A stretch of 64,000 nt of DNA from Bolinopsis microptera (lineage: Eukaryota > Ctenophora > Tentaculata > Lobata > Bolinopsidae): positions 7,809,246 to 7,873,245 of the forward strand of contig NC_087081.1 of NCBI RefSeq assembly GCF_026151205.1, read 5' to 3'. Position 1 is the first letter of the stretch. Every line of letters begins with the position of its first letter. Below are positions 1 through 24,603 of this stretch, piece after piece. The position numbers and the translations under genes are program-made. The notes below the pieces were generated by a model. That model was not told where the DNA came from. It was given only the letters and a program-made list of their open reading frames with translations, and ran no database searches.

Positions 1-330
1 AGAAAAAAGAATAACTTGAGATTCGTTAACTTTAGGTTACACTCTTATTACACCTATTGGTTGAAACTAGATTAAGACCAATCTGCTCAATCTGAACAAA
101 CCCGATCCATATTCAGTTCAAACCACTAGTGTACTTTAAAGCTTCAATAAGGTCCCAAGTATTCGCCGCTCTGCCACGTTGCCTTCAAATTGAGGAAATC
201 CATTCTGCAAGCTGTATGGAAGAGTACCCACCTCATCAATAAAGACGGGTAAAAACCGCCTCTGGACGCTCCTCCAGCTCCAAAACAGTCCCCCCAAACT
301 TTCCATGAGCCGCAACTGGATTCCACAATA
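1..330 (-). mobile_element. CR1-like LINE 3' fragment, array copy 0 (cut by window start)
   Basis: Antisense to the coiled-coil gene. Matches part of the cleaner copy at 31,690-32,537: fragments such as WNPVAAHGS and the RRILGTLL region of a CR1-type reverse-transcriptase C-terminus are readable. The match ends at ATTCCACAAT, where the Penelope-like fragment begins. Confidence 0.8.
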
Positions 331-940
331 GGTGAGTAGATGTTTAGGTATAAAATAGGGGTAACGTGAGTTTAGAGTAATATTGACATGTGTTAATGAC
401 GTAATTGTGTGATAGTACATACAAACGTTTCAACAATTCTCTCCATTATTGCAACAAATTCATATATCCACCAGGTAAGAAAACTCTCAGAGATCTTAAT
501 TTCATACACACCACACCGACAAACCACACTTCACCATACCAAACAGTATCATATGTCTATCCACTCATCACACCAAATCTACGACTGCAAACCAAAAGTG
601 TCATATACACAATTTACGTGTAATTATGTCAAGAGCAATAATAGGGGAAACGAAGTAGAACAGCACATCGATAATTTTACAGAGCATCGAAGACGCAGTC
701 AACAGTCCTTTAAACCTAACTCTATAATGCGTTGGCTGCTCATTATTCAAGTTATCACGATAACATAGAACCAGATATTTCCTTCGTATATTTTAAGAAA
801 TTAACTTTATATATCACCAATAAACGTAAGTGACAGAAGCTTACTACATAATTTATTTAAACCTAGTATCAATAAAACATAGAATAGTGCGAGAAGCACT
901 AAGGGATTCCATTACAACATATTCAAAGACAAATTCTTAA
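331..940 (+). mobile_element. Penelope-like element GIY-YIG fragment, array copy 0
   Basis: Across the copies one can read a C-x4-C-x2-C cluster (CTIPNCIIC), then KCVIYKVTCKLCQELYIGET, then RFSEHRRAV, then a C-terminal KRKVTEAYYINLFKP stretch ending in a stop. This arrangement (cysteine cluster, YxVxCxxC, YIGET, RFxEH) is the GIY-YIG endonuclease end of Penelope-like retroelements. No reverse-transcriptase domain precedes it; it joins the LINE fragment directly. Copy 0 is broken by indels. The transition between YIGET and RFSEH needs a frame change in every copy. Confidence 0.75.
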
Positions 941-1141
941 AACAAATAGCACACGAACCTGCTGTCAGTAGATATTATTTACTGGACGAGTGTAAAACCA
1001 GTGTGTACATCACATTTTCAATGTATATGAACAAAGCGCACTTGATGTAACCTGTATTCAGTGTGTGTAATTTTTAATTTACATTTTAACTAAAGTAATA
1101 GAACATTTTATTATTTACAAACAATTATAAACAAATTTTAC

Positions 1142-1166
1142 CTGAAGATGGCGTTGACGCCGAAAA
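1142..1166 (+). ncRNA. Hammerhead-ribozyme-like core downstream of the Penelope-like fragment
   Basis: CTGAAGA fits the hammerhead core CUGANGA. It is followed by a GGCG/CGCC stem with a TTGA loop and then GAAA, the second core segment. The same motif recurs at 5,736, 10,312 (damaged), 14,865 (damaged), 19,374 (with a G-run insertion) and 24,009, always about 200 bp after the endonuclease stop. Penelope-like elements are known to carry hammerhead ribozymes in their terminal repeats. A U sits between CUGANGA and the stem, and stems I and III plus the cleavage triplet are not obvious, so activity is uncertain. Confidence 0.4.
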
Positions 1167-1472
1167 TTGCCCTACTTCTCCCTAACTTCCTTGTTTCACT
1201 GTCCATGTCTCTGTCCACCGATAATCCAGAGATATCATTAAATCAATATAATTCGTAACTAAATATATCCGAGAGACCACTTTTGACTCGTAATCAATAG
1301 TTTGATTCCAGTAATTTACTACGCTACAATTAATATGCAAGTCGTAACTAATTGGCACCATGATACCACACATACTATTCATAATGATCTGGTAACCAAT
1401 CAACTATTCACCTGTTTGGCTTGATTCAGGGGATACAGTTTATTATACAGTAATATTGATCTGGTAGACAGT

Positions 1473-3180
1473 GTCCGCGGACCGTGTCCGCGACCCGAGA
1501 TCGTGCTATCTCGATACTAGGCCAATGGGACCAAGGCACGAGTGTAGGGAATCAAAGATTTTGCTCCAGAAAAAGAAACCAGCTTAATAGAACCGAAACG
1601 GAAACTAACAAGGAAGTTTTTGGGGGGGGGGGGGGCGGAGTGGGGACTGAAACACTAAACGACACTCTAACAGAACTGAAAGGGACCAAAGGCAGAGTGT
1701 AGGAAACCAATTATTGTGCTCCAGGAAAAAGAAACCAAGCTTAATAGAACGAACGGAAACTACAGGAAGTGACTGAAACTCACAAACGAACACTTTCTAA
1801 CAGAACTAGAAATGGGACAAAAGCAGAGTGTAGGGAATCAAAGATTGTAGCTCCAAGAAAATCGAACCAAGCTTAATAGAACCGAACGGATACTACAGGA
1901 AGTGACTGAAACTCTAAACGAAACCTACATCGGAACTACAGTAAATGACTACAACTCTTAACGACCTCTATCCGAAACAAACAAGAAACCTAACCAGAAC
2001 TAAATGGGGACCAAAACAAGTGTAGGGAATCAAGATTGTGCTCCAGGAAAAGAACCCAAGCATAATAGAACCGAACGAAACTACAGGAAGTGACTGAAAC
2101 TCTATAACGACACTCTAACAGAACTTAATGGTGACCAAAGCAGAGTGTAAGGGAAATCAAAGATTGTGCTCCCAGGAAAAAGAAACCAACCTTAATAGAA
2201 CCGAACAGAAACTACAGGAAGAGACTGAAACTCTAAACGACACTCTAACTACAGAAAGGGACCAAGGCAGAAGTGTAGGGAATCAAAGATTGTGCTCCAG
2301 AAAAAAAGAAACCAAGCTTAATAGAACCGAACAGCAACTACAGAAAGTAACTGAAACTCTAAACGACACTCACAGAACTGAATGTAACAAGGCAGAGTGT
2401 AGGGATCAAGATTGAGCTCCAGGAAAAAGAAACCAAGCTTAACAGAACCGGAACAGAAACAACAGAAAGTACTAAACTCAAACGAAACTCTATCGGAACT
2501 ACAAGAAAAGGACTACAACTCTTAACGACACTCTAACCTGAACTAACAGGAACTAACACATAACTAAATGTTACCAATGCATGAGTGTAGGGAATCAAAG
2601 AATGAGCTCCAGGAAAAAAGAAACCAGCTTAATAAAAAAACCGAACGGAAACAACAGGAAGAGACTGAAACTCTTAACGACACTTTAACATAACTGAATG
2701 GGACCAAAGCAAGTAATAGGATCAAAGATTGTGTTCCAGAAAAGGAACCAAGCTTAACATAAACCGAACAGAAACACAGGAAGTGACTTGAACTCTAATG
2801 ACACTTTTTGGGAGGAGGCAAGAAGTCCAGGAAACTGTAGTATATGGGAACGTTCTGTTCCAAACCCTCCCCCTTACCTGAATAAGCTCTTTACACGCAG
2901 ATCTACATCAACTGACCAACTGGGTATGATGTAAATTTTCTTACTTATTTTAAATATTCCAGGTAATTTATAATTGTTTGTATAATTGCATATTGTTTCA
3001 TATTATCATTATTTTAAACAACGTGAACCAGATAAAGGCTCATACACTGGTTGACCTTACAAACTATAAAATTTCAGAGGATTTCCATTGGGGTGAACGT
3101 TACAGTGGACTGGAGAAGCATTTCAAACAACACCACGAGGAACAAGAGGACCACGAAAATTGCTGAGAGAGGCGACTTGA
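1473..3180 (+). pseudogene. Coiled-coil repeat gene, 3' exons, array copy 1
   Basis: The exon opens after a plausible acceptor (GGTAGACAG) and contains repeats of a 126-bp motif encoding 42-residue units such as TKAECRESKIVLQEKETKL followed by NRTERKLQEVTETLNDTLTELNG-type text. The unit is exactly six heptads with Leu, Ile and Val at spaced core positions, so a long parallel coiled coil is expected. The exon ends near 2,925 with a conserved PPYLNKLF-type tail and a GTAAAT-like donor; a short terminal exon follows, rich in His, Glu and Asp (KQHHEEQEDHE). No upstream exon with a start codon is recognisable. Many indels break the frame here, including a G run at 1,621-1,634. The protein family is not recognised; function unknown. 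Confidence 0.6.
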
Positions 3181-4133
3181 ACAACCAACTAACTGTATCT
3201 ACTCTTGAATTTTTAATAAGTGCATGGTTACACTGTAACCTTGTCAATGAGGGCCCTGTAATCGTCTGAAATCATCTGTAATCAACATTTAGCATGAATA
3301 TTTAACATTACATGAATATACTGTTATCAGCTGATAACTATTAACTATCAAACTATATTATTCCTATGTGGAACTGTGTAATTAAAAACTGTACTGAGCT
3401 AATATGACTTAAACATTTATTATGATAATTACGATTTACATATAATGACTAAATCTTTGATTTTTAAGGCTGAGTTCAACTGTTTAACATTAACATTTGA
3501 ACGAAATCAACACTTATTATAAAAACTCCAACTAATCATCTGACACTGTTCTAATGACTTAATGAGGACTTAAACCCTACCACATTACTTTTTAGAGCGG
3601 AGAACTGAAGCGGTACGACAACAATTGTACAGATAAACAACTGTCCGCGTCTTTTGATCTTGAAGGTTAGCGACCCGTCCTAAAAAATACAAAGTAACAG
3701 GTAAAAGGACGACTTTTAGGAATCAATATTTTCGGTGCCTCATCAAATAGATTAAAATACCTGATAAAAAATAATCAGTAGCAGGGACCATCAAACTTTT
3801 TAAGCTACACCTCTGAATTAAGTCCAAAATTAACGTGTTAATCAACCAAAAAACCACGACAATATGGAGAAAGAATGCGAAAGATATACATAATGGATCA
3901 TTTTGATGATTTCTATCGCTTTTTACTAGGTCACTCTGTACATCACCGCTTTTACGGTCTAGTGATATAACCTACTGAGTATCAATATACTGTCTACAAG
4001 GTAGGTTGGAGTGTAAAGATTACTTATAGAAAATGTACTTCTTCAAAAAAATCACCAATCGCAACACCAACTCATGCATTTTAATAGGTAATAATAATGC
4101 TAATGAGATCATATACTTACCTACTATCATTAG
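3181..4133. repeat. AT-rich spacer of the array unit
   Basis: About 950 bp between the terminal coiled-coil exon and the LINE tail, repeated near 7,773-8,716, 12,317-13,263, 16,841-17,782 and 21,404-22,354. Mostly AT-rich without a long frame. One stretch per copy (for example 13,010-13,140) looks weakly protein-like, with DEYIMDAFDDFYR-type text in a consensus reading, but it has no recognisable family and is broken by indels. Nothing else can be supported. Confidence 0.6.
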
Positions 4134-4922
4134 TAGGTAAGTAAGTAATTAAGTAAAGATTATGGACAAACATCAACACAAGTGTCTACAAAATAATCAA
4201 TGGCACTAAAGTAAAAAAATAATTTGAAATAATATATTTTTCCATCAACATTAATAATATATCAAACTAAATTTTATAATTAATAAAAATCTAATACATA
4301 ATCCTATAAATAATAATTCCATTAATACTACCCAGTGGAATAAAGATACATATGAAACGCTTCTATTGGCCACAAAAGATGAAACCAAAGATATTCATTA
4401 TGTGTCTCCTATGCTTAAAATAACGGTCCTTCAATTTTCCCTAAAAACTTCATTCGAAACATTTCCAAAAATAAAAATCATTTACACTGTGTTTTAGAAA
4501 TCATTTCTTTCTTAAATCCTCCAATCTAACTTAAAGCTAAAACTGTCGAGCATTTTCTTGGACATCTGAAGGATTTGTTCCAGTAAGGAAATGATCGCTC
4601 CGGAAGAAAAGAAGACTGGAGTTCTTAACTTAAGTTACACTCTCTATACACCTATTGTGTTGAACTAGATTAAGACCAGATCTGCTCATCTGACCAAACC
4701 CGAACCATATTTCATTCAGAAACCACTAGTTACTTTAAAAGCGCTTCAAATAAGGACCCCAGGTATTCGCCGCTCAGCCAGCGTTGTCAAATTGAGGATA
4801 TCCAGTCTGCAGCTGTATGGAAAGCACCCACCAGCATCAATAAGACGGGTAAACCGCCTCTGGACGCTCTTCAGCTCCAAAACAGTCCCGCCACATCCAT
4901 GAGCCGCAACTGATTCCACCAA
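4134..4922 (-). mobile_element. CR1-like LINE 3' fragment, array copy 1
   Basis: Begins with the (TAAG)n tail typical of this LINE's 3' end and runs through the 3' UTR and reverse-transcriptase C-terminus to the fusion point ATTCCACCAAT. Compare the copy at 31,690-32,537, where the same protein end is open. The frame is broken here. Confidence 0.85.
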
Positions 4923-5531
4923 TAGGTGTGATAAGTAGGTATAAAATAGTGGTATCGTGAGTTTAGAAATAATGACATGTGGTCAACTGAAACAAATTGG
5001 ATAGCTGATAAATCGATACATACAAACTTTTCAACAATTCTCTCCATTAGTCGCAACAATTCTATTCAATACAGGATAAAACTCTCTGAGATCTTATGTT
5101 TCATCACGACCAACACGCAAACCACACTGCACCATACCAAACTGTATCATATGTCCACTCATCACAACAAATCACGACTGCAAACCAAATGTGTCATAAA
5201 CAAATTACGTGTAAATTATGTCAAGAGCTAAATATAGGGGAAACGATTAAACAGCACACGATAGATTTTCAGAGCATCGTAGAGCAGTCAACAGGGTAGG
5301 CCATTACCTATCCTGATACTGCGTTGGGGCTGCTCATTATTCAGAGTTTCACATAACAAAGAACCAGATATTTTCCTTCGATATTTAGAAATTAACATAT
5401 ATATGCAACCATTAAACGTTAAATTACAGAACTTACTACATTAATTTAGGAGAAACGAATATCCAATAACACAGAAGAGTGCGGAGAAGCTTAAGGGATT
5501 CTTTTACAACATATTCAAAGAGACAAATTTA
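4923..5531 (+). mobile_element. Penelope-like element GIY-YIG fragment, array copy 1
   Basis: Contains ITCKLCQELNIGETI in the open frame at 5,096-5,299, the zinc-cluster/GIY-YIG core, then loses frame before the RFSEH part. Same boundaries as other copies. Truncated at its 5' side, so endonuclease only, without reverse transcriptase. Confidence 0.75.
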
Positions 5532-6063
5532 AACAAATAGCCACACGAAACCTCTGTTCCAGTATGATATTAAGTCTTGAACAGAGTGTAAAACGTGTGT
5601 ACATCACTATTTTCAAATGTAATGAACAATACCATATGATGTAACCTGTATTCAGTGTGTGTAATTTTAAATTATCATTTTAACTAATAGAAAGCAAATT
5701 CATTATAATACAACATTTATATACAATATATAGCCCTGAAGATGGCGTTGGACGCCGAAAATTGCCCTTACTCCTAACTTCCTTGTTTCACTTTTCCTTG
5801 TCTCTTCCAACCGTAAATATATCCAGATATCAGTAAATCAATATAATTCGTAACTAATTATATCCGAGAGAGACCACATTTTGAATCGAAATCAAAAGTT
5901 TGATCATAATTTACTACGCTACAATTAATTATGCTAGTCGTACTAAATTTGCAATCCGAAGATACCAAACAACTATCATATGACCTGGTAACAATCAACT
6001 CATTTCACCTGTGCTTGATTCAGGGTATACTTATATTATACATTAATATGATCTGGTAGACAG

Positions 6064-7772
6064 TGGTACCGCGAGACACGTGGTCCGCGGACCGTGATCT
6101 GGGCCTAATCTCGATACTTTGCCAATGGGACCCAAGCAGAGTGTAGGGAATCAAAGATTGTGCACCAGAAAAAGAAACCAAGCTTAATAGAACCGAAACG
6201 GAAACATACAGGAAGTGACTGAAACTCAAAAAACGACACTCTAACAGAACTTGAATGGGACCAAGGCAGAGTGTAGGAAATCATAGATGGGTGCTCAGGA
6301 AAAAAGATAACCAAGCTTAATAGAAACGAACGAAACTAACAGGAAGAGACTGAAACTCTAAACGACACTTTTAAAACAGAAACTGAATGGGACAAAAGCA
6401 GAGTGTAGGGAATCAAAGATTGTGCTCCTAGAAAAATAACAAGCTTAATAGAACCGAACGGAAACTACAGGAATAGACTTAAACTCTAACGAAACTCTAT
6501 CGGATACTACAGAAAGACTACAACTGCTTAACGACACTCTATCCGAACTACAGGAACATAACACCAGAACTAAATGTGACAAAAACAGAGTGGTAGGGAA
6601 TCAAAGATTGTGCTCCAGGAAAAAGAAACCAAGCTTAATAGAAACCGAACGGAAACTACTGGAAGTGCTGAAACTTCTTAACGACACTCTTACAGAACTG
6701 AATGGGACCAAAGGCACAGTGAAAGGAATCAAAGATTGTGCTCCAGGAAAAAGAAACCAAGCTAAAAACCGAGACAAAAACTACAGGAATTGACTGAAAC
6801 ACTAAACGACACTCTACCAGAACTGAATGGAACCAAGGCAGAGTGTAGGGGAATCAAAGTTTTGCTCCAAAAAAAGAAAAACCAAGCTTAATAGAACCGA
6901 ACAGAAAACTACAGAAAGTAACTGAAAACTCTAAACGAACACTCAAACATAACTGAATGGGGGACTCAAGGCATGAGTGTATGGAATCAATGATTGAGCT
7001 CCATGAGGAAAAAGAAACCAAGCTTAACAGAAAGACAGAACAGAAACTACAGAAAGTAACTGAAACTCTAAACGAAACTCTATCGGAACTACAGGAAAGG
7101 ACTACAACTCTTAACGACACTCTATCCGAACTAACAGGAACTAACACAGAACTAAATGGGACCAAAGCAGAGTGTAGGGAATCAAAGATTGAGCTTCCAG
7201 GAAAAAGAAACCAAGCATAATAGAACCGAACGGAAACTACAGGAAGTGACCGAAACTCTATAACTACACTCTAACAAACTGAATGAGTGGGGAACAAAGC
7301 AGAGCATAGGGAATCAGATAATGTGTTCCAGAAAAAGAAACAAGCTAAACATAACCGAACAGAAACTACAGGAAGTGACTGAAACTCTTAATGCACTTTT
7401 TTGGATGAGGGCTAGAAGTCAGGAAACTGTTAGTATGGGACGTTCTGTCACGGTCCCCCTTGACCTGAATAAGCTCTTTAACACGGCAGCTCTACAATCA
7501 ACAGACCAACTGTGGAATATGATGGGTAAATCTTCTTACGTTTTTTAAATTTTCCAGAAAATGTATAATTGTTTGTAATTAATTGGCATAATTGTTTCAT
7601 ATAATCATTATTTAAAACAACGTGACCAGATAAAGCTCATACCACTGTTGACCTGACAAACTATAACATTTCAGAGGATTTCATAGGGGTGAACGTTACA
7701 GTGGGACTGGTGAAGCATTTCAAACAACACCACGTAGGAACAAAGGACACGATAATTGCGAGGGAGGACTGA
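6064..7772 (+). pseudogene. Coiled-coil repeat gene, 3' exons, array copy 2
   Basis: Same organisation as copy 1. This copy has the longest clean stretch, about 6,957-7,220, in which 42-residue units alternate with an inserted segment (LQERTTTLNDTLSELTGTN) before the repeat resumes. The exon tail (SMGRSVTVPLDLNKLF) and donor lie at about 7,435-7,532. The terminal exon, after an ACATTTCAG acceptor near 7,673, encodes a His/Glu/Asp-rich end and stops at about 7,772. Frame is broken by indels elsewhere. It could be a host gene fragment amplified with its flanking transposons or an unrecognised transposon ORF; no start codon or other domain is visible. Confidence 0.62.
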
Positions 7773-8716
7773 ACAACAACTACAGTTATCTACTATTGAA
7801 GTTTTAATTAAGTGATGGTATACTGTAACCTTTGTCATTGGCCCTGTAATCGTCTGTAATCATCTTTAATCACACATTTAGCTGTAATATTAACATTACT
7901 AATATCTGATTAATCAGCTGTAACCTATTAACTATCAACTAATATTATTCTATGTGTGACTGAATTAAACAGTAACTGACTAATAAGACGTAAACATTTA
8001 TTATTATTAATTACGATTTACATATAATGACTAAAATCTATGATTTAAAGCTTGTTCAACAGTTAACAATTAACATTTGACGAAATCAACACTTATTATT
8101 AAAACACCAACTAATCATTCTCAGCTGTTCTTATGACTTTATGAGGTCTTAAACCCACCAACATTACTTTAGGATTCGTAACTGAAGCGGTAACGACAAC
8201 AATAGAACCAGATAAACAACTGACCACGCTCTTTTGATCTTTAAGTTAGCTACCCGTCCTAATAATTACTAAGTAACTGGTAAAAAGACGACTTTAGGAT
8301 CAATATTTTTCGGTGCCGTCATCAAATAAAATTATAATACCTGATAAAAAATATCAGTAGCAGGGTCACTTCAATTACTTTTTAAGCTACACCTCTGGAA
8401 TAAGTCCAAATTAACGATTTATCAACAACCACGACAATATGGGAGAAAATAAAGCGAAGATGAGTACATAAAGGATGCTTTTGATGATTACTATCGCATT
8501 ATACAAGGCACCTATCATACTAGCCGCTTGTACGTCTATTGGATATTACCCTCTGAGTAACAATATACTGTACTACATGGTAGGTTAGGAGGCGTAAAAG
8601 ATGTACGTATAGAAAATTCTTCCTTCTAAAATATCACCAATCGCTACACCTACGCTAATGCATTTTTTATTAGAAAATATAATGCTATGAGGATCATATA
8701 CTTACCACTAACATTA

Positions 8717-9509
8717 GGTAGGTAAAGTAAGTTGTAAGTAAAGATTATTACAAACATCATCACAATGTCTACAAAATATCATTGCACTAATAAAAAAATA
8801 ATTTAAATAAATATATTTTTCCATCAACATTATATCATTTATCAAATTAAAATTTAATATTAATAACATCTAATACAATAACTATAAATAAATTAATTCA
8901 TATACTTCCCAGTGGAATCAATAATAATGAAACGCTCTTTGCCACAAAATGAAGAAACAAAAGAAAGTTCATTATGTGACCTCCTAATAGCATAAAATAA
9001 TTGGGTCTTCAATTTTTCCCTAAAACTTCAATTCGAAACATTCCAAAAAATAAAAATCCATTTACACTTATTTTAGAATCATTTCTTTCTTAAATCCTAC
9101 CAATCTAACTTTAAAACTAAAACTGTCGAGCAGTTCATTACATCTGAAGTGAGTTTGTTCCAGTAAGGAATACTCCTCCGGAAGAAAAGAAGACTGGAGA
9201 TTCTTAACTTTTAGTTTTACACTCTTATTACACCTATTGGTTGAAACTAGATTAAGTCCGAGATCCTGCTCATTCTGAACAAACCCGATCCATAGTCAGT
9301 CAAACCACTAGTTACTTTAAAAGCTCAATAAGGTCCCCATGTATTCGCCGCCCTCCTGCCAGCGTTTCAAAATTGATGATATCCAGTCTTGACAGCTGTA
9401 TGGAAGAGTAAGCCCACCTCATCAATAAGACGGGCAAACCGCCTCCGACGCTCTCCAGCTCCAAAACAGTCCCCCCCAACTTCCATGAGCCGCAACTGGA
9501 TTCCCAATT
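8717..9509 (-). mobile_element. CR1-like LINE 3' fragment, array copy 2
   Basis: Same fragment and same 5' breakpoint as in the other units, with a degenerate (TAAG)n tail at about 8,717-8,745. Frame broken by indels. Confidence 0.85.
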
Positions 9510-10109
9510 GGTGTTTAGATGTTAGGTATAAAATAGGGTATCGTGAAGTTAGTAATATTGACATGTGTATACGTAAATGTGTGATAGTACATACAAACTT
9601 TCAACAATTCTCTCCATTATTGCAACAAAATCATATTCACACCAGGAAGTAAACTCTCAGAGATCTTATGGTTCATTCACGACCACAACGACAAAAAAAC
9701 CACACTGCACCATACAAACTGATCATAATGTCCACTTCATACAACAAATCACGACTGCAAAACCAAAATGTTTCATATACAAAGTTACGTAGTAAATATA
9801 ATGTCAAAGCTAGATATAGGGGAAACGATAGAACAGCACACGATAGATTTTCAGAGCAATCGAAGAGCAGTCAACAGGCCTTTAACCTATCCTGATAATG
9901 CGTTGGCTGCTCATTATTCAGAGATTCCACGATAACATAAGAACCAGATTATTTTCCATCGATATTTTAGAAAATAACTTATATAGCCACCATTAAACGT
10001 AAAGTGACAGAACTTACAACATTAATTTATTTAAACCATAGTACAATAACAAAAGAAAGTGCGAGAAGCGTAAGGGATTTCTTTTACAACCATATCAAAG
10101 ACAAAATTA
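9510..10109 (+). mobile_element. Penelope-like element GIY-YIG fragment, array copy 2
   Basis: Here the second half is in a readable frame at about 9,820-9,895 (RGNDRTAHDRFSEQ), giving the conserved Arg/Glu part of the endonuclease, while the cysteine cluster is out of frame with it. Confidence 0.75.
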
Positions 10110-10645
10110 AACAAATAAGCACACGAACCTGCTGTTCAGTAGATATATGTACTTGGACAGAGTGAAAAACTGTGTGTACAACACAATTTTTCAATGTAAT
10201 GTACAATACCATTTGCTGTAACCTGTATTCAGTGTGTGTAATTTTTAATTTAGCATTTTAACTAGTATAGAAGCATTTATTATATACAAAACATTTAAAC
10301 AATTTTAAGCCTGAAGTATGGCTTTGACGCCGAAAAATTGCCCTTACCTCCTAACTTCCTTGTTCACTTGTTCCCTTGTCTTCTTCCAACCGGATAATAT
10401 CCAGATCTCAGTAAATCAACTATTATTCGTAACTAATATATCCGAGGAGACCACATTTGAATCGTATCAATAGTTTTGATCCAGTAATTTAACTACGCTT
10501 AACAATTAATTATGTCTATCGTAACTAAATTGCATACCAAGATACAAACATACTATTCAATTATCTGGTAACCAATCAACTATTCACCTGATGCTTGATT
10601 CCATTGGATAACTGTTTATTATACAGAAATATGATCTTGTAGACA

Positions 10646-12316: not shown

Positions 12317-13263
12317 ACAACAACTACTGGTTACTACTATTGAAGTTTTTAATAAGTGCATTGTACCTGTAACCTTTGTCATTGGGCCCTGTAATCGTCC
12401 TGAGATCATCTGTAATCAACATTTAGCTTGTAATATTAACATTACTAATATACTGTTATCAGCTGTTAACTATTAACTATCATACAATATTATTTTATGA
12501 GACGATAAAACTGTAACAGACTTAATAAGACGTAAACATTTATTATGATAATTACATTTAACATATAATGACTAAAAATTCTTTGATTTTAAAAGCTGTG
12601 ATTCAACTGTTAACATAAACATTTGACCAATCAACACTTATTATAAAAACTCCACTAATCGATCTCACTGTCTATGACTTTATGAGGTCTTTAAACCCTA
12701 ACCAACATTACTTTTAGACGGAACTGAGCGGTAACGACAAACAATTGTACCAGATAAACAACTGACCCGACCCGCTCTTTTGATCTGAAGTTAGCGACCC
12801 GTTCCTAAAAATTACTAAGTAACTGGTAAAAGGAGGCGACTTTAGATCAATATTTTTCGTTGCCTCATCAAATATAATATAATACCTGATACAAAAAATA
12901 TCAGTAGCAGGGTCCTTCATACTTTTTAAGCTACACTCTCTGGAATATGTCCAAATTAACGTGTTTATTCAACAACCACACGACAAATGGAGAAATACTT
13001 GCAAGATGAGTACATAATGGATGCTTTATTGATGATTTCTATCGCTAATTTACTCGGTCACTCTTACATCTACCGCTTGTACTTCCCTAGTGATTATTAC
13101 CTACTGAGTAACCAATATACTGACTACCTTGGTAGGTTAGGAGAGGTAAAGATGTACGTAATAGAAAATTCTTCCTCTAAAATATCACCAAATCGCACAC
13201 CTACGCTATGCATTTTTATAGGTAAATATAATCTATGAGGATATATACTACATTCTATCATTA

Positions 13264-14052
13264 GTTAGGTAAGTAAGTAAGTAAGTAAAGATTATGACAT
13301 AACATCATCACAAGTGTCTACAAAATATCAATGCACTAAATAAAAAAATAATTTAAATAAATATATTTTTTCCATCAACATTAATAATTTATCAAATTAA
13401 ATTTATTAATTAATAAAATCTAACCTTTATCTATAAATAATTAATACATTAATACTTCCCAGTGAATAAAGATTTATGAAACGCTTCTTTGCCACAAAAT
13501 GGATGAAACCAATATATTCATAATGTGTCTCCTTATTGCCTTAAATAACTGGGTCCTTCAATTACCCTAAAACTAAACTTCATCGAAACATTCCAAAACA
13601 AAATCATTTACACAGTTTATTAGAAATCACATTTCTTTCTTAAATCCTTCCAATCTACTTTAAAGCTAAAAAACAGTCGAGCGTTCTTGACATCTGAAGG
13701 GAGATTTGTCCAGTAAGATGACTCGCTCCGGAAGTAAAAGAAGACTGGAGAATTCTTAAACTTTATTTTATCACTACTTATTACACCTATTGGTTTAAAC
13801 AGATTAAGACTCAGATCTGCTCATACTGAACAAACCCGAACCATATTCAGTCAAACCACTAGTTACTTTAAAAGCTTCAATAAGGTCCCCCCCATGTATC
13901 GCCGCTCTGCCAGCGTTGTCAAATGAGATATCCAGTCTGCACTGTATGGAAGAGAACCCTACCTCATCAACAAGACAGGGTAAAACCGCCTCTGGACGCT
14001 CTCCCACTCCAAAACAGTCCCCAACTCCATGAGCCGCAACTGATGCCACAAT
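13264..14052 (-). mobile_element. CR1-like LINE 3' fragment, array copy 3
   Basis: Same fragment. The GTAAGTAAGTAAGTAAG tail is clean at 13,268-13,289. A stretch reading LIEAFKVTSGLTEYGSGLF (about 13,804-13,905, - strand) is the conserved LINE C-terminal text. Confidence 0.87.
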
Positions 14053-14655
14053 AGGTGTGTAGATGTTAGGTATAAAATAGGGTATCGTGAGTTTAGTAAT
14101 ATTGACATGTGTATGACGTAATTGTGTGATAGTACATACAAACGTTTCAACAATTCTCTCCATTATTGCAACAAATTCATATTCCTCACAAGTGGGGGGT
14201 AAGAAACTCTCAAGATTCTAATGTTCATCACGACCACACGACAAACACACTGCACCATAACCAAACTGTATCAAATGTCCACACATCACAACAAATCACG
14301 ACTGCAAACCAAAAATGGTCAAATCAAAGTTACGTGTAATATAATGTCAAGAGCTATGGTTATAAGGTGAAACGAGTAGAACAGCACACGATAGATTTTC
14401 AGAGCATCGAAGGCAGTCCAACATGGAACAGGCCTTAACCTTCCTGCTATGCTTGGCAGCTCATTATTCAGAGATTTCCACGATAAACAAAGAACCAGAT
14501 GTTTCCTTCGATATTAGAAATTAACTTATATAGCACCATTAAACGTAAAGTGAAACAGAAGCTTACTACATTAATTTATTTAAACCTAGTATAATAACAA
14601 ATAAAGAGTGCATAGCTAAGGATTTCTTTTACAACATATTCCAAAGACAAATTTA
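14053..14655 (+). mobile_element. Penelope-like element GIY-YIG fragment, array copy 3
   Basis: Same fragment, more damaged, with an extra G run near 14,192-14,200. The DNA still aligns to the other copies from the LINE junction through the stop at about 14,655. Confidence 0.72.
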
Positions 14656-15184
14656 AACAAAATATTAGCACACGAACCTGCTATTCATTAGCCATTATGT
14701 ACCTTGGACAGAGTGTAAAACTTGTGTACCAATCACTATTTTCAAATAAATGTACAATACAACATTTGAGTAACCAGTATATCCAGTGTGTGTAATTTTA
14801 ATTTAGCATTTTAACTATTATAAAGCATTATATATACTAACATGATATAACAATTTTTACGCCCTGAAATGGCTTTAGACCCGAAAATTAGCCCTTACTC
14901 CTAACTTCCTTGTTTCACTTTCCCTTTGTCTCTTCAACGGAATAATATTCCAGATATCAGTAAATCATATTATTCTAACAATTATATCCGAGAGACCACA
15001 TTTGAATCGTAATACAATATTTTGAACCATTAAAATACTACGCAACAATTAATTATGCTAGTCGTAACTAATTGCAAATCCAAGATACCAAACATACTAT
15101 CTCAATGATCTGGTAAACCAACACTATTCACCTGTTTCTTGATTCAGGGATACTGTATTATACAGTAATTGATCTGGTACGACA

Positions 15185-16840
15185 GTGGTCCGCGGACCGT
15201 GGTCCGCGGACCGTGTACGGGCTATCTCGATACTGGCCAATGGACCCAAGGCAGAGTGTATGGGAATCAAAGATGTCTCCAGGAAAAGAAACCAAGCTTA
15301 ATAGAACCGAACGGAAACTACAGGAAGTGACTTGAAACTCTAAACGACACTCTAACAGAACTGAATGGGACCCAAGGCATAGTGTAGAAATCAAAGATTG
15401 TGCTCAGGAAAGATAAACCAAGCTTAATAGAACCGAACGGAAACTACAGAAGTGACTGGTAACCAAACGACACTTTAACAGAACTGAATGGAACAAATAC
15501 AAGTGTTAGGGAATCCAAAGATGTGCTCCAAGAAAAATGTAAACCAACTTAATAGAACCGAACGGAAAACTACAGGAAGTACTGAAACTCTAAACGAAAC
15601 TCTATCGGAACTACAGAAAGGACTACAACTCTTAACGACACTCCTATCCGAACTAAGCAGGAACTAACCAGAACTAAATGGACCAAAACAGAGTGTAGGA
15701 TCAAAGATTTTTGCTTCAGAAAAAGAAACCAAGCTTAATAGAACCGAACGGAACTACAGGGAAGTGACTGAAACTCTAACGGACACTCTAACAAACTGAT
15801 GGGACCAAAGCAGAGTGTAGGGAATCAAAGATTGTGCTCCAGGAAAAAGAAACCAAGCTTAATAAACCAACAGAACTACAGGAAGTGACTGAAACTTCTA
15901 AACGACACTCTAACAGAAACTGAATGGGACCAAGCAGAGTGTAGGGAATCAAATGATTGTGCTCCAGAAAAAGAAACCAAGCTTAATAGAACCGAACAGT
16001 AAACTACAAAAGTAACTGAAACTCAAAAACGACACTCTAACAGAACAGAATGGGACCAAGGCAGAGTGTAGTAATCAAGGATTGTGCTCCAGGGAAAAAG
16101 AGTCCAAGCTTAACAGAACCAACAGAAACTCAGAAATAACTGAAACTCTAAAACGAAACTCTAACGAACTACAGAAAGGACTACAACTCTTAACGACACT
16201 CTATCCGAACTAACAGGAACTAACACGAACTAAAAGGACCAAACACGAGTGTACGGGAAATCAAAGATTTGTGCTCCAGGAAAAAGAAACACAAGCTTAA
16301 TGAACCGAACGGAAACTACAGGGAAGTGACTGAAACACTTAACGACACTTTAACAAACTGAATGGACCAAAGCAGAGTATAGTGAGACAAAGAATGTGTT
16401 CCAGGAAAAAGAAACCAAGCTAACAGAAACCGAACCGAAATACGAATGACCTGAAACACTTAATGACACTTTTGTTGGAGTAGGCTAGAAGTCGGAAACT
16501 GTTATAGAAATGGGACGTTCTGTTCACATCCCCCTTACCTGATAAGCTCTTACACGGCAGCTCTACAATCAACTGAACCAACTGGGTTGATTGGTTAAAT
16601 CTTTCTTACTTTTTTAAATTTCCAGGAAATGTAATAAATGTATTGTATAATTGCATAATTGTTTCATATTATCATTATTTAACAACGTGACCAAGATAAA
16701 AGCTCATACCACTGTTGACCTGACAAACTATAACAATTCAGAGGATTTCTTGGGGAAACGTTACAGTGGGACTGGTGAAAGCATTTCAAACAACACCACG
16801 AAGGAACAAGAGGACCACGAAAATTGCGAGGAAGGACTGA
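15185..16840 (+). pseudogene. Coiled-coil repeat gene, 3' exons, array copy 4
   Basis: Fourth copy. Recognisable 126-bp repeats from about 15,245 to 16,470, tail and donor near 16,540-16,600, terminal exon 16,739-16,840 with the HEEQEDHE-type acidic/His-rich end. The opening of this copy keeps two perfect CCGCGGACCGTG repeats at 15,191-15,213. Indels interrupt the frame. Confidence 0.6.
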
Positions 16841-17782
16841 ACAACAACTACTGTTTTATCTACTATTTGAATTTTTAATTAAGCTGGCATTGTACACTGT
16901 AACCTTTGTCATTGGGCCCTGTAATCGTCTGTAATTCATCTGTAATCAACATTTATCTGTATTATTAACATTACTAATATACTGTTACAGCTGATAACTA
17001 TTAACTATCAACTAATATTGATTCCATGTGACTGTTTTCAACTGTACTGAACTTAATATGACGTAAACATATTATTATGAAATTACGATTTAACATAAAA
17101 TGACTAAGAAACTTTTGATATAAGCTGTGTTCAACTGTTAACATTATCATTTGAGAAATCTAACACTTAATTTAATAAAAACACCAACTAATCAACTGTC
17201 ACTGTTCTTATGACTTTATGAGGTCTTAAAACCCTACCAACATTACTTTTAGAGCGAACAGAAATGTCGGTACGACAACAATGTACCAGATAAACATCAG
17301 ACGCGCGTTCCTTTTGAACTTGAAGTTACGACCCGTCCTAATAATTACTAGTAACTGTAAAAAGGACGACTTATAGGATCAATATTTCGGTGCTCATCAA
17401 ATAGATTATAATACCTGATAAAAATCTCATAGCAGGGGTCCTGTCATACTTTTTAAGCTTACACCTCTGGAAATAAGTCCAAAATTAAGTTTTTTATCAC
17501 AACCGCCGACATATGGAGAAATAATGCGAAGAAGAGACATAAAGGATGCTTTTTGATGATATCTATCGCGTTTACTAGGTCACTCTTACATCTACCGCTT
17601 GTACGGTCTAGTGATATTACCTACTGATATCAATAAACTGTCTACATGGTAGGTTAGGAGGAGTAAAAGATGTACGTATAAAAATGTCTACCTTCTAAAA
17701 TATCACCAATCGCTAACACCTACGCAATGCATTTTATAGTAAATAAAATGCATGAGGATCATTACATACCTACTATCCATAG

Positions 17783-18563
17783 TAGGTAATTAAGTAAGTA
17801 AGAAAGATTATACATAACATCATCACAAGTGTCTACAAAATATCATTGCACTAAATAAAAAAATAATTTAAATAAATATATTTTCCATCAACATTAATAA
17901 TTTCTCAAATTAAATTTTATTATTAATAAAATCTAATACATTATCTATAAATAATTAATTCAATAATAATTCCCAGTGGAATAAAGATTTATGAAACGCT
18001 TCTTTTGCCACAAAAGTATGAAACCTAAGAAATTCATTATGTGTCTCCTATTGCATAAATAACTGGGTCCTTCAATTTTTCCCTAAAACTTCATTCGAAC
18101 CATTCCAACAATAAAAAATCATTTACACTGATTTAGAAACTCATTTCTTTCTTAAATCCTTCCATCTAACTTTAAAGCTTTAAAACTGACGAGCAGTTCT
18201 TGAAACTTGAAGGGAGTTTGTTCCAGTAAGGAATGACTCGCTCCGAAGAAAAGAAGACTGGAGATTCATAACTTCAGTTACACCTCTTATTACACCTATT
18301 TGGTTGAAACTAGATAAGACCAGATCTGCTCATTCTGAACCAACCCGAACCATATTCAGTCAAAACCACTAGTTACTATTAAAAGACTTCAATGAAGGTC
18401 CCCATGTATTCGCCGCTCTGCAGCGTTGTCAAATTGAGGATATCCAGTCTGCAGCTGTATGGAAGAGTACCCACTCATCAATAAGAACGGTTAAACCGCC
18501 TCGGACCTCTCCATCTCAAAACAGTCCACCCCACTTCCATGAGCCGCACACTGGATTCCCAAT
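17783..18563 (-). mobile_element. CR1-like LINE 3' fragment, array copy 4
   Basis: Same fragment, tail at about 17,783-17,805, fusion to the Penelope-like fragment at about 18,563. Frame broken by indels. Confidence 0.85.
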
Positions 18564-19171
18564 AGGTGTGTAGACGTTAGGTATAAAATAGGTATCGTGA
18601 GTTAGGTAATATTGACATTGTATGACTTAATTGTGTGATAGTACATACACACATTCAACAATTCTCTCCATATTGCAACAAATTCATATTCACACCAGGT
18701 AAGAAACTCTCAGAGATCTTATGTTCATCACGACCTACACCGACAAACACACTGCAAACCATACCAAACTGTATCAATATGTCCCTCATCACAACAAATC
18801 ACGACTGCAAACCAAAATGTGTCATATACAAAGTTACGGTTGGTAAATTAATGTCAAAGCTATATATGGAGGGGAAACGATAGAACAATCACACGATAGA
18901 TTTTCAGAGCATCGAAGAGCAGTCAACAGAGGTCTTTAACCTATCCTGATAAATGCTTGGCTGCTAATTTTCTGAGTTTTCAACTATAACATAGAGACCA
19001 GATATTTCCTTCGATATTGTTAGAAATTAACTTATATAGCACCATAAACGTAAAGGTGACAGAAAGCTTTTACTTACCATTAATTTTATATTAAACCTAG
19101 TATCAATAACAAAGAAGAGTGCGAGTAAGCTTAATGGATTTCTTTTACAACATATCAAAGACACAATTTAA
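18564..19171 (+). mobile_element. Penelope-like element GIY-YIG fragment, array copy 4
   Basis: The open frame at 18,635-18,883 reads GKKLSEILCSSRP and then ITTNHDCKPKCVIYKVT, the N-terminal side of the module including its cysteines. Frame is lost before YIGET. Confidence 0.75.
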
Positions 19172-19711
19172 AACAAATTAGCACCCGAACCTGCTGTTCA
19201 GTAGGAAAATTATGTACTTGTGACAGAGTGGTATACCGTGTGTACATCACTATTTTCCCAATGTAATGACAATACCATTTGATGTAACCGTATTCAGTGT
19301 AGTGTAATTTAATTTAGCATTTTAACTAGTATATAAGCATTATTTATATACTAACATTTATAACAATTTTAAGCCTGAAGATGGTGGGGGGGGGGTTGAC
19401 GCCGAAAAATTTGCCCTTACTACCTAACTATCCTGTTTCACTTGTCCATGTCCTCTTCCAAACCGGATAATATCCCAGATATCAGTAAATCAATATTATT
19501 CGTAACTAATTATAACCAGAGACCACATTAGAATCGTAATCAATAGTTTGATCCAGTAATTTACACGCTACAATTAACTTATGCTAGTCCGTAACTAATT
19601 GATCCAAGATACCAAGACATACTATTCATAGATCTGGTAACCAATCAACCTATTCACCCTGTGTGCTTGATTCAGGGGATACTGATATTATACAGTAATA
19701 GATCTGTAACA

Positions 19712-21403
19712 GGCCGCGGACCCGTGGCCGCGGACCGTGATCGTGCCTATCTCGATACTGCCAATCGGGACCGAATGCAGAGTGTAATGGAAACAAAGAT
19801 TGGCTCCCAGGAAAAAGAAACCAGCTTAATAGAACCGAACGGAAACTACAGGAAGTGACCTGAAACACTAAACGACACTCTAACAAACTGAATGGGACAA
19901 GGCATAGTGTAGGAAATCAAAAGAATTGTGCTCCAGAAAAAGAAACCAAGCTTAATATGAACCGAACGGAAACTACAGAAGTGACTGAAACTCTAAACGA
20001 CACTTTAACAGAACTGAATGGGACAAAAGCAGAGTGTAGGGGAATCAAAAGATAGTGCTGCCAAGAAAAAATGAACCAAGCTTAATAGAACCGAACGGAA
20101 ACTACAGGAAGTGACTGAAACTCTAAACGAAACTCTATCGGAACTACAGGAAAGGACTACAACTCTTAACGACACTCTAATCCGAAACTAACAGGAACTA
20201 ACACAGAACTATATGGGACCAAAACCAGAGTGTAGGGAATTCACAGATGAGCATCCAGGAAAAAAGACAACCAATCTAAATGGAAAACCGACTCGGAAAC
20301 ACAGGAAGTGACTGAAACTCTTAACGACACTCCTAAACAGAACGAAGGGACCAAAGCAAGTGTAGGGAACAAAGAATGTGCTCCAGGAAAAAGGATACCA
20401 AGCTTTAATAGAAACCGAACAGAAAACTACAGAAGTGACTGAAACTCTAAACGAACACTCTACTAACAGAACTGATTGGACCAAGGCAGAGTGTAGGGAA
20501 TCAAAGATTGTTCTCCAGAAAAACAGAAACCAAGCTTAATAGAACCGAAACAGAAATAACAAAAGTAACTGAAACTCAAAACGACACACTAACAGAACTG
20601 GAATGGGACCAGGCAGAGTGTAGGGAATCAAGGATTGTGCTCCAGGAAAAAGAAACCAAGCTTAACAGAAAACCGAACCGAAACTACTAAATTACTGAAA
20701 CTCTAAACGAAACTCTATCGGAACTACAGGAAAGGACTACAACTCTTAACGACACTCTATCCGAACTAACAGGAACTAACACAGAACTAAATTGGGACCA
20801 AAGCAGAGTGTAGGGAATCAAAGATTGTGCTCCAGGAAAAAAGAAACCAAGCTTAATAGAACCGAACGGAAAATTCTACAGTAAGTGACTGAAACTCTTA
20901 ACGACACTTTAACGAGAACTGAATTGGACCAAAGCAGAGTATAGGAAATCAAAGATTGTGTTCAGAAAAAAGAAACCAAGCTTAACAGAACCGAACAGAA
21001 ACTACAGAAGTGACTGAAACTCTTAATGACACTTTTTTTAGGATGAGGCTAGAAGTCTGGAAACTGAAAGTAGAAGGGACGTTCTGTTCACTCCCCCTTA
21101 CCTGAATAAGCTCTTTACAAACGGCACGCTCTACAATCAACTGAACCAACTGGGTTATGAGGTAAATCTTTCTACTTTTTTAAATTTCCCAGGAAATATA
21201 ATTGTTTTGTATAAATTGCATAATTGTTTCATATTATCATTATTTACAACGTGAACCAGATAAAGCTCATACCACTGTTGACCTGACAAACTTATAACAT
21301 TTCAGAGAATTCATTGGGGTAAAACGATACAGGTGGGACTGGTGAAGCATCAAACAAACACCACGAGGAACAAGAGGACCACGAAAATTGCGAGGAGGAC
21401 TGA
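19712..21403 (+). pseudogene. Coiled-coil repeat gene, 3' exons, array copy 5
   Basis: Fifth and last copy. Repeats extend from about 19,770 to 21,030 as blocks of three, then four, then two 126-bp units separated by the shorter LQERTTTLNDTLSELTG-type segments. Tail and donor lie near 21,070-21,165 and the terminal exon ends in TGA at about 21,403. The sixth occurrence of the upstream landmark (24,367) is not followed by repeats, so the array is truncated there. Confidence 0.6.
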
Positions 21404-22354
21404 ACAACAACTTGTTATGTACTATTGAAGTTTTAATTAAGTGCATGGTAACACAGTAACCTTTGTCATTGGCCTGTAATCGTCTTAAATCATCTGTAAT
21501 CAACATTTAGCTGTAATATTAACATTACTAGTATACTTTTATCAGCAGTTAACTATTAACTACAACTAATAATATTCTATGTGAAGTATTAAAACTGTAC
21601 TGACTTACATATGACTTAAACATTTATTATGATAATTACGAATTACATATAATACTAAATCTTGATTTAAAAGCTGTGTTCAACTGTTAACATTAACATT
21701 TGACGAAATCAGACACTTTAATAAAAAAACTCCAACTAATCATCTGTCAGCTTTTCTTATGAACTTTATGAGGTCATAGAACCCTACCAACATTACTTTA
21801 GAAGCGAAAACTGAATGCGGTACGACAACAATTGTAGCATAATAAACAACTGACTGCTCTTATGATCTTGAAGTTAGCGACCCGTCCTAATAAGTTTACT
21901 AATAACTGGAAAAAGGACGACTTTAGGATCAATATTTTCGGTGCCTCATCAAATATATTATAAAACCTGAAAAAAAAAAATATCATTAGCAGTGTCCTTC
22001 CATACTTTTTTTAGCTAAAAAACCGCTGGAATAAAGTCCAAAATTAACGTGTTAATCAACAACCAACGACAATATGGAGAAATAATGCGAAAGAGAACAT
22101 AATGGATGCTTTATGATGATTTCTAATCGCTTTTTACTAGTCATCTTACATCAACCGCTTGTACGTCCTAGTGGATATTACCTACTGAGTATCAATATAC
22201 TTTCAACAATGGTAAGGTTAAGGAGGTGTAAAAGATGTACGTAGAGTAAAATGTCTTCCTTCTAAAAATATCACCAATCGCTACACCTACGCTAAGCATT
22301 ATATATAGGTAAATATAATTCAATGAGGATCATATACTATACCTACTAACATTA

Positions 22355-23165
22355 GTAGGTAAGTAAGTAAGTAAGTAAAGATTATGACGATAACATCAAC
22401 ACAATTGGTCTACAAAATATCATTGCACTAAATAAAAAAATAATTTAAATAAATATATTTTTTCCATCAACATTAATAATTTATCGAAAAAAAATTTATT
22501 AAGTTAATAAAATCAATACAATTATCTATACATAATTAATTCATTAATAACTTCCCAGTGGGAATAAAGATTTATGAAACGCTTCTTTGCCACAAAAGGA
22601 TGAAACCAAAGATATTCAATTATGTTGTCTCCTTATTGCTTAATAACTGGGACCTTTCAATTATTCCCTAAAACTTTCATTCGAAACATTTCCAAAATAA
22701 AAATCATTTACAACGTTTTTAGAAATCATTTCTTCTTAAAACCTTCCAATCTAACTTTAAAGCTTAAAACTGTCGAGCATTTCTTGTACAATCTGAAGGG
22801 AGTTTGTTCCCCAGAAAGAATGACCTCGCTCCGGAAGAAAAGAAGACCTGGAGATATCTTAACATTAAGTTTTACGACTCTTATTACACCTAAATGATGA
22901 AAACTATATTAAGACCAGATCTGCTCATTCTGAAACCAAACCCGATCCAAATTCAGGTCAACACCACTAGTTATCTTTTAAAAGCTTCAATAAGGTTCCC
23001 CATGTATTCGCCGCTCAGCCAGCGTTGTCAAATTGAGGATATCCATCTGCAGCTGTAAGAAGAAGACCCACCTTCATCAATAAGACGGGTAAACCGCCTC
23101 TGACCGCATCTCCAGCTCCAAAACAGTCCCCCCAACTTCCATGAGCCGCAACTGGATTCCACAAT
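22355..23165 (-). mobile_element. CR1-like LINE 3' fragment, array copy 5
   Basis: Same fragment with a clean (TAAG)n tail at 22,357-22,380. Ends at the shared breakpoint ATTCCACAAT near 23,165. Confidence 0.85.
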
Positions 23166-23795
23166 AGGTGGTGTAAGATGTTAGTATAAAATAGGGTATG
23201 CGAGAGTTTATTAGTTTTAAATTGAAATGTGTATGAAACGTAATTGTGTGATAGTACATACAAAACGTTTTCAACAATTCACTCCATTAATTCAACAATT
23301 CATATTCAGACCAGGTAAGAAACTCCACAGAGATCATATGTTCCCATCACGACCACACGACAAACCACACTGCACCATACCAAACTGTATCATATGTGCC
23401 ACTCATCACAAAAACAAAACACGACGCAAACCAAAATGTGTCATAATACAAAGTACGTGAAATTATGTCAAGAGCTATAAATAGGTGAAAAACAAGGAAA
23501 GAAACCAGCAACACATAGACTTTTCAAGCACGGAAGAGCAGTCAATACAGCCTTTAACCTATTCCCCCCCCACCCCCCCCTGAAATAATCCCGTTGGCTG
23601 CTCATTATTCAGAGTTCCACGATAACATAGAACCAGATATTTCTACGAAGTATTTTAGAAATTAACTGTATATAGCACCATTAAACGTAAAGGACAGAAG
23701 ATACCTACATAAATATTATTAACCTAGTAACAATACAAAGAAGAGAGCTAGAAAGCTTAAAGGATTTCTTTACAACAAATTCAAATACCAATTTA
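23166..23795 (+). mobile_element. Penelope-like element GIY-YIG fragment, array copy 5
   Basis: Most damaged copy, with a C-rich insertion near 23,564-23,580. KPKCVI is readable near 23,430. Followed by the hammerhead-like motif at about 24,009. Confidence 0.7.
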
Positions 23796-24382
23796 AACAA
23801 ATAGCACACGAACCTGCTGGTTTTCTTAATATTAAGACTTGGACTGAGTGTAAAAACGTTGAACCAAATTCACTATTTTACAATGTAATGTACAATACCA
23901 TTTTGATGTAACCTGTATTCAGTGTGTGTAATTTTTAAATTTAGCCATTTAAACTAGTATAGAAGCAAATTATTATATACCCCTAAAACAAATTATAACA
24001 AATTTTGCCCGAAGATGGCGTTGACGCCGAAAATTTTGCCTTACACCTAACTTCGCTTGTTTCACTTGTCCCTTGTCTCTTCCAACCGGATGAATGATCC
24101 CAGAATAACAGTTAAATCAAATATTACGAAACTAATTATATCCGAGTAGACCACAATTTGAATCGTAATCAATAGTTTGATTCCGGGGAGGGGGTTTGGG
24201 GGGAGTAAATTACTACGGCTACAATAAATTAAAGCCTAGACGAAAACTAATTGCATCCAAATACCAAAACAACTAATTCATATAACTAGGTAACCAATCA
24301 AACTATTCACTTTAGCTGATTCAGGGATACTATTATTATACAGAATATGATCCCTGGTAGACAGTGGTCCCGGACCGTGTCC

Positions 24383-24603
24383 GCTTTGTCATCAGTCTTA
24401 AGATCTTTCATGAACTCCTTTTTAAACCGAGCTAAGAATCCTTCTGGTGATTCTTCACTTTCTTTTTTCTCTTTTGCATCTGCATCTTTATCATCTTTTA
24501 GAACAGGAGGGGTGGTGGAGATCCCTCTTGAAATACGAGAAATTGAATCAGCTTGACTAAATTGTTGAAGTTTTCTCAGCTGGTGGATGCAGTGCCTTGA
24601 CAT
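24383..24603 (-). CDS. First exon of a mitochondrial-presequence protein, possibly TIM44-like; cut by the array
   Basis: Opens with ATG at 24,601-24,603. The first ~30 residues are rich in Arg, Ser, Gln and Ile and lack acidic residues apart from one Asp (MSRHCIHQLRKLQQFSQADS then ISRISRGISTT), a typical matrix-targeting presequence. A Lys/Glu/Asp-rich stretch follows, then GFLARFKKEFMKDLKTDDK, which resembles the GF-x-x-x-x-x-x-KxE segment after the presequence of TIM44, the matrix tether of the import motor. The similarity is short, so the name is not assigned. Codon 74 or so meets the array junction (GCGGACACGG). The break lies close to where an exon could have ended, so either a splice donor was lost or the assembly jumps here. 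No downstream exon is in the window. Confidence 0.5.

What the first reader, a model, noticed from the sequence alone, without database searches (positions are those of the whole stretch)
1..24382. A 4.6-kb tandem array that co-amplifies a coiled-coil gene end with two retroelement fragments
Every unit has the same LINE/Penelope-like fusion point and the same order of parts, so a composite locus formed once and was then amplified. This is not rDNA, histone or any named satellite I recognise. The coiled-coil sequence is unnamed and may be a host gene, a transposon ORF or part of a new macrosatellite.
Basis: partly seen in the sequence, partly recalled or inferred. Interest (0 to 1): 0.8.

Follow-up and report, generated by a model that had tools for sequence, protein, structure and literature searches.

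The report
Misplaced raw-read copies of tandem repeat
A 4.5-kb repeat made of the end of a host gene and the ends of two retroelements probably does occur in tandem in this animal's DNA, but the copies seen here look like uncorrected sequencing reads pasted into an assembly gap, so their differences and their place on the chromosome cannot be trusted.

Summary
The tandem order is in the sequence: about 5.3 units in window 1-24384, 8.3 in all (C10:7795543-7833629). The unit is a Penelope-like 3' end, a short dispersed repeat, the 3' end of a Laminin_G_3/coiled-coil host gene, and an antisense LINE 3' end. But it appears to sit here as a gap filled with an uncorrected long read. (1) Fourteen full units differ from their consensus by 2,128 substitutions (ts/tv 0.16) and 3,705 indels, mostly 1 bp; six LINE copies of this genome give ts/tv 2.57 and 0.02 indels per substitution. 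(2) Sharing of differences between units is close to independent noise; the consensus is 99% identical to clean Penelope-like copies. (3) Window 3441-24384 recurs on C8 with 12 differing columns, errors included: one read used twice. (4) A clean LINE lies 7,323 bp beyond the C10 edge and 7,327 bp beyond the matching base on C8, so both flanks were laid on the same LINE of that read. The genome fits Bolinopsis microptera, whose published assembly used wtdbg, TGS-GapCloser and pilon. A nearly uniform composite macrosatellite probably exists; its locus and copy number are unknown.

The parts
1..24384 (+). Part inside the window of one noisy tandem block (C10:7795543-7833629); unit starts at about 571, 5165, 9742, 14289, 18792, 23413
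   Evidence: identity to consensus per 500 bp
3441..24384 (+). Stretch shared with C8:17104194-17125133 (opposite strand), 12 differing columns in 20.9 kb: apparently the same read placed twice
455..1247 (+). Penelope-like 3' end (GIY-YIG region), present in every full unit; the unit consensus is 99% identical to clean copies elsewhere
1250..1520 (+). Short dispersed repeat (consensus 662-942), two 94% copies in the C6 flank, one of 84% on C1
   Evidence: window limits approximate
1524..2830 (+). 126-bp (42-aa) coiled-coil repeats: 3' part of a Laminin_G_3/coiled-coil host gene, 5' part absent
2831..4137 (+). End of that gene's reading frame and its 3' flank; single units 77-88% to the clean gene regions on C1 and C2, consensus 85-94%
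4138..4919 (-). LINE 3' end, antisense; recurs at 8725-9511, 13270-14055, 17787-18566, 22360-23168
24385..24627 (-). Clean coding frame with a mitochondrial-type leader (by eye), cut by the fill edge at 24384/24385
31708..32489 (-). Clean LINE copy outside the array, 7,323 bp from the fill edge: the apparent anchor of the gap fill

Best explanation
The window block is an assembly gap filled with an uncorrected, error-prone long read (probably PacBio CLR) from a highly uniform 4.5-kb tandem repeat. The read (at least 44.7 kb, about 9.8 units, if C10 and C8 share one read) was used for the C10 gap and, inverted, for a C8 gap. In both, the flanking contig was laid on the read by its own LINE copy, which resembles the LINE inside each unit. 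The biological unit is a composite: a Penelope-like 3' end, a short repeat, a 3' piece of a Laminin_G_3/coiled-coil gene, and a LINE lying antisense behind the gene. One such composite formed, was amplified by unequal exchange or rolling-circle copying, and is kept nearly uniform. Shown: noise spectrum, near absence of shared variants, C8/C10 identity, anchor distances. Inferred: species, software cause, single read, amplification mechanism. Unknown: true locus and copy number.
For: Noise: 14 units vs consensus, 61,559 aligned bases, 289 ts and 1,839 tv, 2,336 insertion and 1,369 deletion events. Controls from the same genome: 15 pairs among 6 LINE copies, 226 ts, 88 tv, 5 indel events; 3 pairs of flank LINEs, 62 ts, 29 tv, 14 indel events; gene copies C1/C1, 13 ts, 10 tv, 2 indel events; C1/C2, 21 ts, 19 tv, 11 indel events. 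Substitutions carried by 1/2/3 units: 1,438/249/43, against 1,496/242/39 expected for independent noise. Consensus 99% to clean Penelope-like copies (29 of 43 matches) while the 14 array matches are 88-92% (40 of 450 candidates scored). Noise starts at the fill edges, yet the LINEs 743 bp (C8) and 3.3 kb (C2) outside are clean. C8/C10: 12 differing columns in 20.9 kb. Anchors: LINE 7,323 bp (C10) and 7,327 bp (C8) beyond the same read base; C2 LINE at 3,272 bp, phase distance 3,130, ratio 1.045; C6 at 8,225 and 8,133 bp on another unit repeat, ratios 1.017 and 1.009. In (26 of 26 candidates scored; 24 of 24) the only clean matches are gene copies on C1 and C2, no clean unit. Methods passages of PMC10232365: wtdbg, HiRise, TGS-GapCloser, pilon.
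Against: No unit-like anchor was found on the other side of any of the four fills (36.3, 19.9, 17.6, 15.5 kb searched), although the tool's paper says reads bridge the gap and align to both sides; it also speaks of 2 kb of aligned sequence beside the gap, while three of the four anchors lie 3.3-8.2 kb away, and it describes error correction as the normal step, though it can be left out. The methods passages I saw do not give the options used. The substitution bias (T to A, G to T) has the same strand relative to the unit in all fills; I have no source that this is a CLR bias, and reads of both strands would be expected. Sharing by four or more units is above chance (14 positions against 5.8), so a few real variants or consensus faults exist. 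The LINE anchor of C10 is only 93.6% to the consensus, against 97.6 and 98.0% for C2 and C8. One other LINE fragment (C10, ratio 1.116) and one other repeat copy (C6, 1.10) in the flanks do not fit the anchor rule. Control ratios vary: ts/tv falls to 1.1 and indels rise to 0.28 per substitution in one gene pair. The species is inferred: 232 contigs here, 346 scaffolds in the published table.
Confidence: 0.92

Rival explanations
1. An old, real tandem array at this C10 locus whose units drifted apart neutrally, plus a recent 20.9-kb segmental duplication to C8.
For: The assembly shows tandem units on C10, C8 and C2 and one on C6; C8/C10 near identity.
Against: ts/tv 0.16 and 1.74 indel events per substitution, against 2.57 and 0.02 in six LINE copies and 1.1-2.1 and 0.09-0.28 in the pairs; star-like with almost no shared variants within or between loci; same LINE distance on both chromosomes to 4 bp in 7.3 kb.
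Confidence: 0.03
2. The gap fill is noisy but correctly placed: the repeat really lies at one of these loci (C10, C8, C2 or C6).
For: No spurious anchor was found on one side of each fill; a 101-bp satellite abuts the C10 left edge.
Against: C10 and C8 appear to use the same read with left edges 17 kb apart on it, so at least one of the two is wrong; the C10, C8, C2 and C6 fills each have one side that fits an anchor on a dispersed repeat.
Confidence: 0.12
3. The reads come from extrachromosomal circles of the unit rather than a chromosomal array.
For: Units are nearly identical and no clean chromosomal copy was found; the C6 fill is one unit long.
Against: No direct test; a uniform chromosomal satellite predicts the same. 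The C6 length may only reflect gap closing.
Confidence: 0.06
4. A biological mutator acted on the array (strand-biased T to A and G to T).
For: Strong bias of constant strand in all fills.
Against: More indels than substitutions, stops at fill edges, absent from LINE copies nearby.
Confidence: 0.01

Closest known systems
TE-derived and composite satellites / macrosatellites (class from general knowledge)
   Same: Kilobase unit containing retroelement pieces and a gene piece, in tandem, nearly uniform.
   Different: No clean assembled array, locus or copy number is available here; known only from noisy sequence.
Long-read gap-closing artefacts (TGS-GapCloser type)
   Same: Error-like sequence bounded by clean sequence; repeat-driven wrong choice of reads, which the tool's paper names as a risk (PMC7476103, passages).
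   Different: Large fill (38 kb), apparently the same read in two chromosomes, with the anchoring repeat traceable to within 4 bp; only one side of each fill explained.
Penelope-like elements
   Same: Clean source copies have long frames with a C-terminal GIY-YIG-like region.
   Different: Only a 3' end is in the unit; Pfam GIY-YIG is below its cut-off (17.3 vs 22.6 bits).

Membership tests
Gap fill with an uncorrected long read | Indel-rich, private differences unlike natural substitutions | tested here: met
   controls
Gap fill with an uncorrected long read | Sharp change from noisy to clean at the edges | tested here: met
   noise up to the edge; LINE 743 bp (C8) and 3.3 kb (C2) outside are clean; the bases right at the outer edge could not be judged
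Gap fill with an uncorrected long read | Flanks align to the read on both sides | tested here: inconclusive
   one side explained in 4 of 4 fills, the other side in 0 of 4
Gap fill with an uncorrected long read | Assembly made with a read-based gap closer | tested here: inconclusive
   says so for Bolinopsis microptera; identity of this genome inferred
Satellite / macrosatellite | Head-to-tail units on one molecule | tested here: inconclusive
   8 units with independent errors in one block; one molecule only if the fill is one read
Satellite / macrosatellite | Units homogenised | tested here: met
   sharing close to noise; 14 of 4,502 positions shared by four or more units (5.8 expected), 4 by five or more
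Satellite / macrosatellite | Chromosomal location and copy number | not testable with these tools
   needs accurate reads or FISH
Penelope-like element | RT plus C-terminal GIY-YIG in source copies | tested here: inconclusive
   GIY-YIG E 0.0059, below cut-off, no RT family reported for the partial frame; RT motifs recognised from recall only
LINE (non-LTR retrotransposon) | RVT_1 domain in source copies | tested here: met
   one source copy (L022 frame), E 1.2e-31; clade not tested
Segmental duplication C10/C8 | Block made of natural sequence, with no shared placement cue in its flanks | tested here: not met

The most novel reading that the evidence does not exclude
The animal carries large, still-uniform arrays (or circles) of a composite unit that holds about nine 42-aa coiled-coil repeats (seven exact motif matches) in a nearly open frame of a Laminin_G_3 host gene, against two or three in the clean genes. 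Such an array could act as a reservoir that expands or converts the gene's coiled-coil region.
Probability: 0.12. Interest if true: 0.5.

Novelty: new member of a known kind. Interest (0 to 1): 0.22.

Why it matters
It shows a practical trap: tandem units that look like an old, drifted array can be raw reads pasted into gaps, recognisable by indel excess, very low ts/tv and near absence of shared variants. Any study of segmental duplication, satellite age or pseudogenes in this assembly should screen for such fills. The underlying composite repeat is probably real DNA for which no clean copy was found in the assembly.

Tried and rejected
Neutral drift of an old array, a C10-to-C8 segmental duplication and a biological mutator were tested and rejected. 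An element with fixed ends was considered: the blocks on C10, C8, C2 and C6 begin and end at different unit positions, so no. My first spectrum used a poor multiple alignment and overstated substitutions (about 10%); it was replaced by pairwise alignment to a refined consensus. Histones gave no noisy array to serve as a control (18 matches, none with stops). Tim44 was guessed for the exon at 24385-24627 and not supported (0 matches at E up to 10). A stretch between two Penelope-like ends on C3 held frames of other retroelements and did not help. Shared repeats between the unexplained sides of the fills were looked for; C6 and C8 share one of about 89%, which I could not fit to an anchor. The rRNA search failed. 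Paper searches: for satellites or repeats in this species (7,683 papers hold two of the terms; the 12 listed do not hold the species name); two searches were used as listings only.

Full report
What is in the window. Window 1-24384 holds tandem units of about 4.5-4.75 kb. The window is G000:C10:7809246-7873245, and the block runs from C10:7795543 to 7833629, about 8.3 units. The same unit occurs on C8 (17097615-17125133, opposite strand), C2 (about 16269912-16294413) and once on C6 (15852897-15857509).

What the unit is made of. In consensus coordinates (4,502 bases): a Penelope-like 3' end from about 4393 round to about 660, a short dispersed repeat at 662-942, 126-bp coiled-coil repeats of a host gene from 941 and that gene's 3' flank to about 3495, a LINE 3' end in antisense at 3496-4276, and a spacer of about 117 bases. 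The host gene is clean in three places: L015 and L016 on C1 (423 aa each) and L017 on C2 (478 aa). Its Laminin_G_3 domain passes the Pfam cut-off in all three: L015 and L017, L016. The unit lacks the Laminin_G_3 part. A Penelope-like source copy has a long frame with a GIY-YIG-like C-terminus (Pfam E 0.0059, below cut-off); a LINE source copy has RVT_1.

Why the copies look like noisy reads. In one search the 91 pairs of the 14 full units were similarly distant, 0.77-0.84 substitution identity. After refining the consensus the 14 units showed 2,128 substitutions (289 transitions, 1,839 transversions), 2,336 insertion events and 1,369 deletion events over 61,559 aligned bases. Six LINE copies, the best six of 40 scored and including the window's own, gave 226 transitions, 88 transversions and 5 indel events in 15 (not independent) pairs. 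Other controls are less extreme but still far off: three flank LINE pairs, 62 transitions, 29 transversions, 14 indel events; gene copies C1/C1, 13, 10 and 2; C1/C2, 21, 19 and 11. Substitutions carried by one, two and three units number 1,438, 249 and 43; independent noise predicts 1,496, 242 and 39. At four or more units 14 positions are seen against 5.8 expected, 4 of them at five or more, out of 4,502; these may be real variants or consensus faults. The consensus is 99% identical to 29 Penelope-like matches elsewhere, while the 14 array matches in that search reach 88-92% (40 of 450 candidates scored). It is 97.6, 98.0 and 93.6% identical to the LINE copies in the C2, C8 and C10 flanks. 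The noise reaches the edge of each block.

Why the placement is doubtful. Window 3441-24384 equals C8:17104194-17125133 with 12 differing columns in 20.9 kb, apparent read errors included. From the C10 edge to the first good LINE copy in the flank is 7,323 bp; from the matching base on C8 to the LINE in the C8 flank is 7,327 bp, of which about 6.6 kb lie in the fill. So both flanking contigs seem to have been laid on the same LINE copy of one read. On C2 a LINE lies 3,272 bp from the edge, where the unit phase predicts 3,130 (ratio 1.045; the four full units there are 2.9-4.5% longer than the consensus). On C6 two neighbouring pieces of the 662-942 repeat lie at 8,225 and 8,133 bp (ratios 1.017 and 1.009). 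Against this: a 208-bp LINE fragment in the C10 flank (ratio 1.116) and a second repeat copy in the C6 flank (ratio 1.10) do not fit, and the opposite sides of all four fills show no unit-like anchor in 36.3, 19.9, 17.6 and 15.5 kb.

Source. Total 264.65 Mb and C1 of 26,206,493 bp fit Bolinopsis microptera: 265 Mb, 13 chromosomes, largest 26.2 Mb (PMC11797021, passages including part of Table 1); the contig count differs (232 here, 346 there). PMC10232365 (passages) reports PacBio CLR, HiFi or Iso-Seq libraries on Sequel II for its species; it does not say in those passages which one B. microptera had, but assembles it with wtdbg 2.4 and the sponges with hifiasm, from which I infer CLR. For B. 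microptera it names HiRise, TGS-GapCloser 1.1.1 and pilon. I was already looking for uncorrected gap filling before seeing that passage (search terms). PMC7476103 (passages) says that misalignments due to repeats may raise misassembly and that correction can be left out; it also says that reads bridge both flanks, with 2 kb of aligned sequence beside the gap, which three of the four anchors here do not meet.

What is probably real. Units within one fill have independent errors, so they were read separately; if the C10 fill is one read, one molecule carried at least eight of them in tandem, and the union of the C10 and C8 fills implies a read of at least 44.7 kb. No clean unit was found although all candidates were scored; the tool warns that a missing match does not show absence. 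The repeat is therefore probably present in the animal without a polished copy in the assembly. Its coiled-coil frame in the consensus is nearly open, with a few frame changes that may be consensus errors. It holds seven exact copies of a repeat motif, about nine repeats by their spacing, against 2, 2 and 3 exact copies in the clean genes. Function is not shown; I take it to be a satellite without a selected product.

Change on checking. The confidence was lowered from 0.93 to 0.92, because the paper's 2-kb rule and the library type of B. microptera had been left out of the weighing.

Noticed in passing
window 24385-24627 (-): A coding frame with a mitochondrial-type leader ends exactly at the fill edge; the rest of the gene was not found and Tim44 was not supported.
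   Followed up: partly
L025 (C2:4242300-4245800) and loci: Penelope-like 3' ends occur as close inverted pairs: of 24 neighbours within 15 kb among the 52 matches, 22 are minus then plus (3' ends outward), 1 plus-minus, 1 minus-minus; two outward frames in L025, 285 and 391 aa.
   Followed up: partly
C10:7791663-7792908 and 7794828-7795540 (L002, L003): A satellite of about 101 bp in two blocks ends 2 bp before the left edge of the fill.
   Followed up: partly
C1 about 182-190 kb (L015) and 604-611 kb (L016): The Laminin_G_3/coiled-coil gene region is present twice in opposite orientation, 95-99% identical in the longer matches.
   Followed up: partly
window 39303-39948 and 40758-41403: 646-bp inverted repeat, 100% complementary arms, 809 bp apart.
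   Followed up: no
window 48117-48593: 84-bp (28-aa) repeats that look like a C2H2 zinc-finger array (motif recognised by recall).
   Followed up: no
window 59497-62106: Several arrays of a 21-bp unit, most containing GTGACGTCATCA.
   Followed up: no
all fills: Substitutions are mainly T to A and G to T on the unit's + strand; G is the base most often lost in all six groups, A the base most often inserted (tied with C in one). The cause of this bias is not explained.
   Followed up: partly
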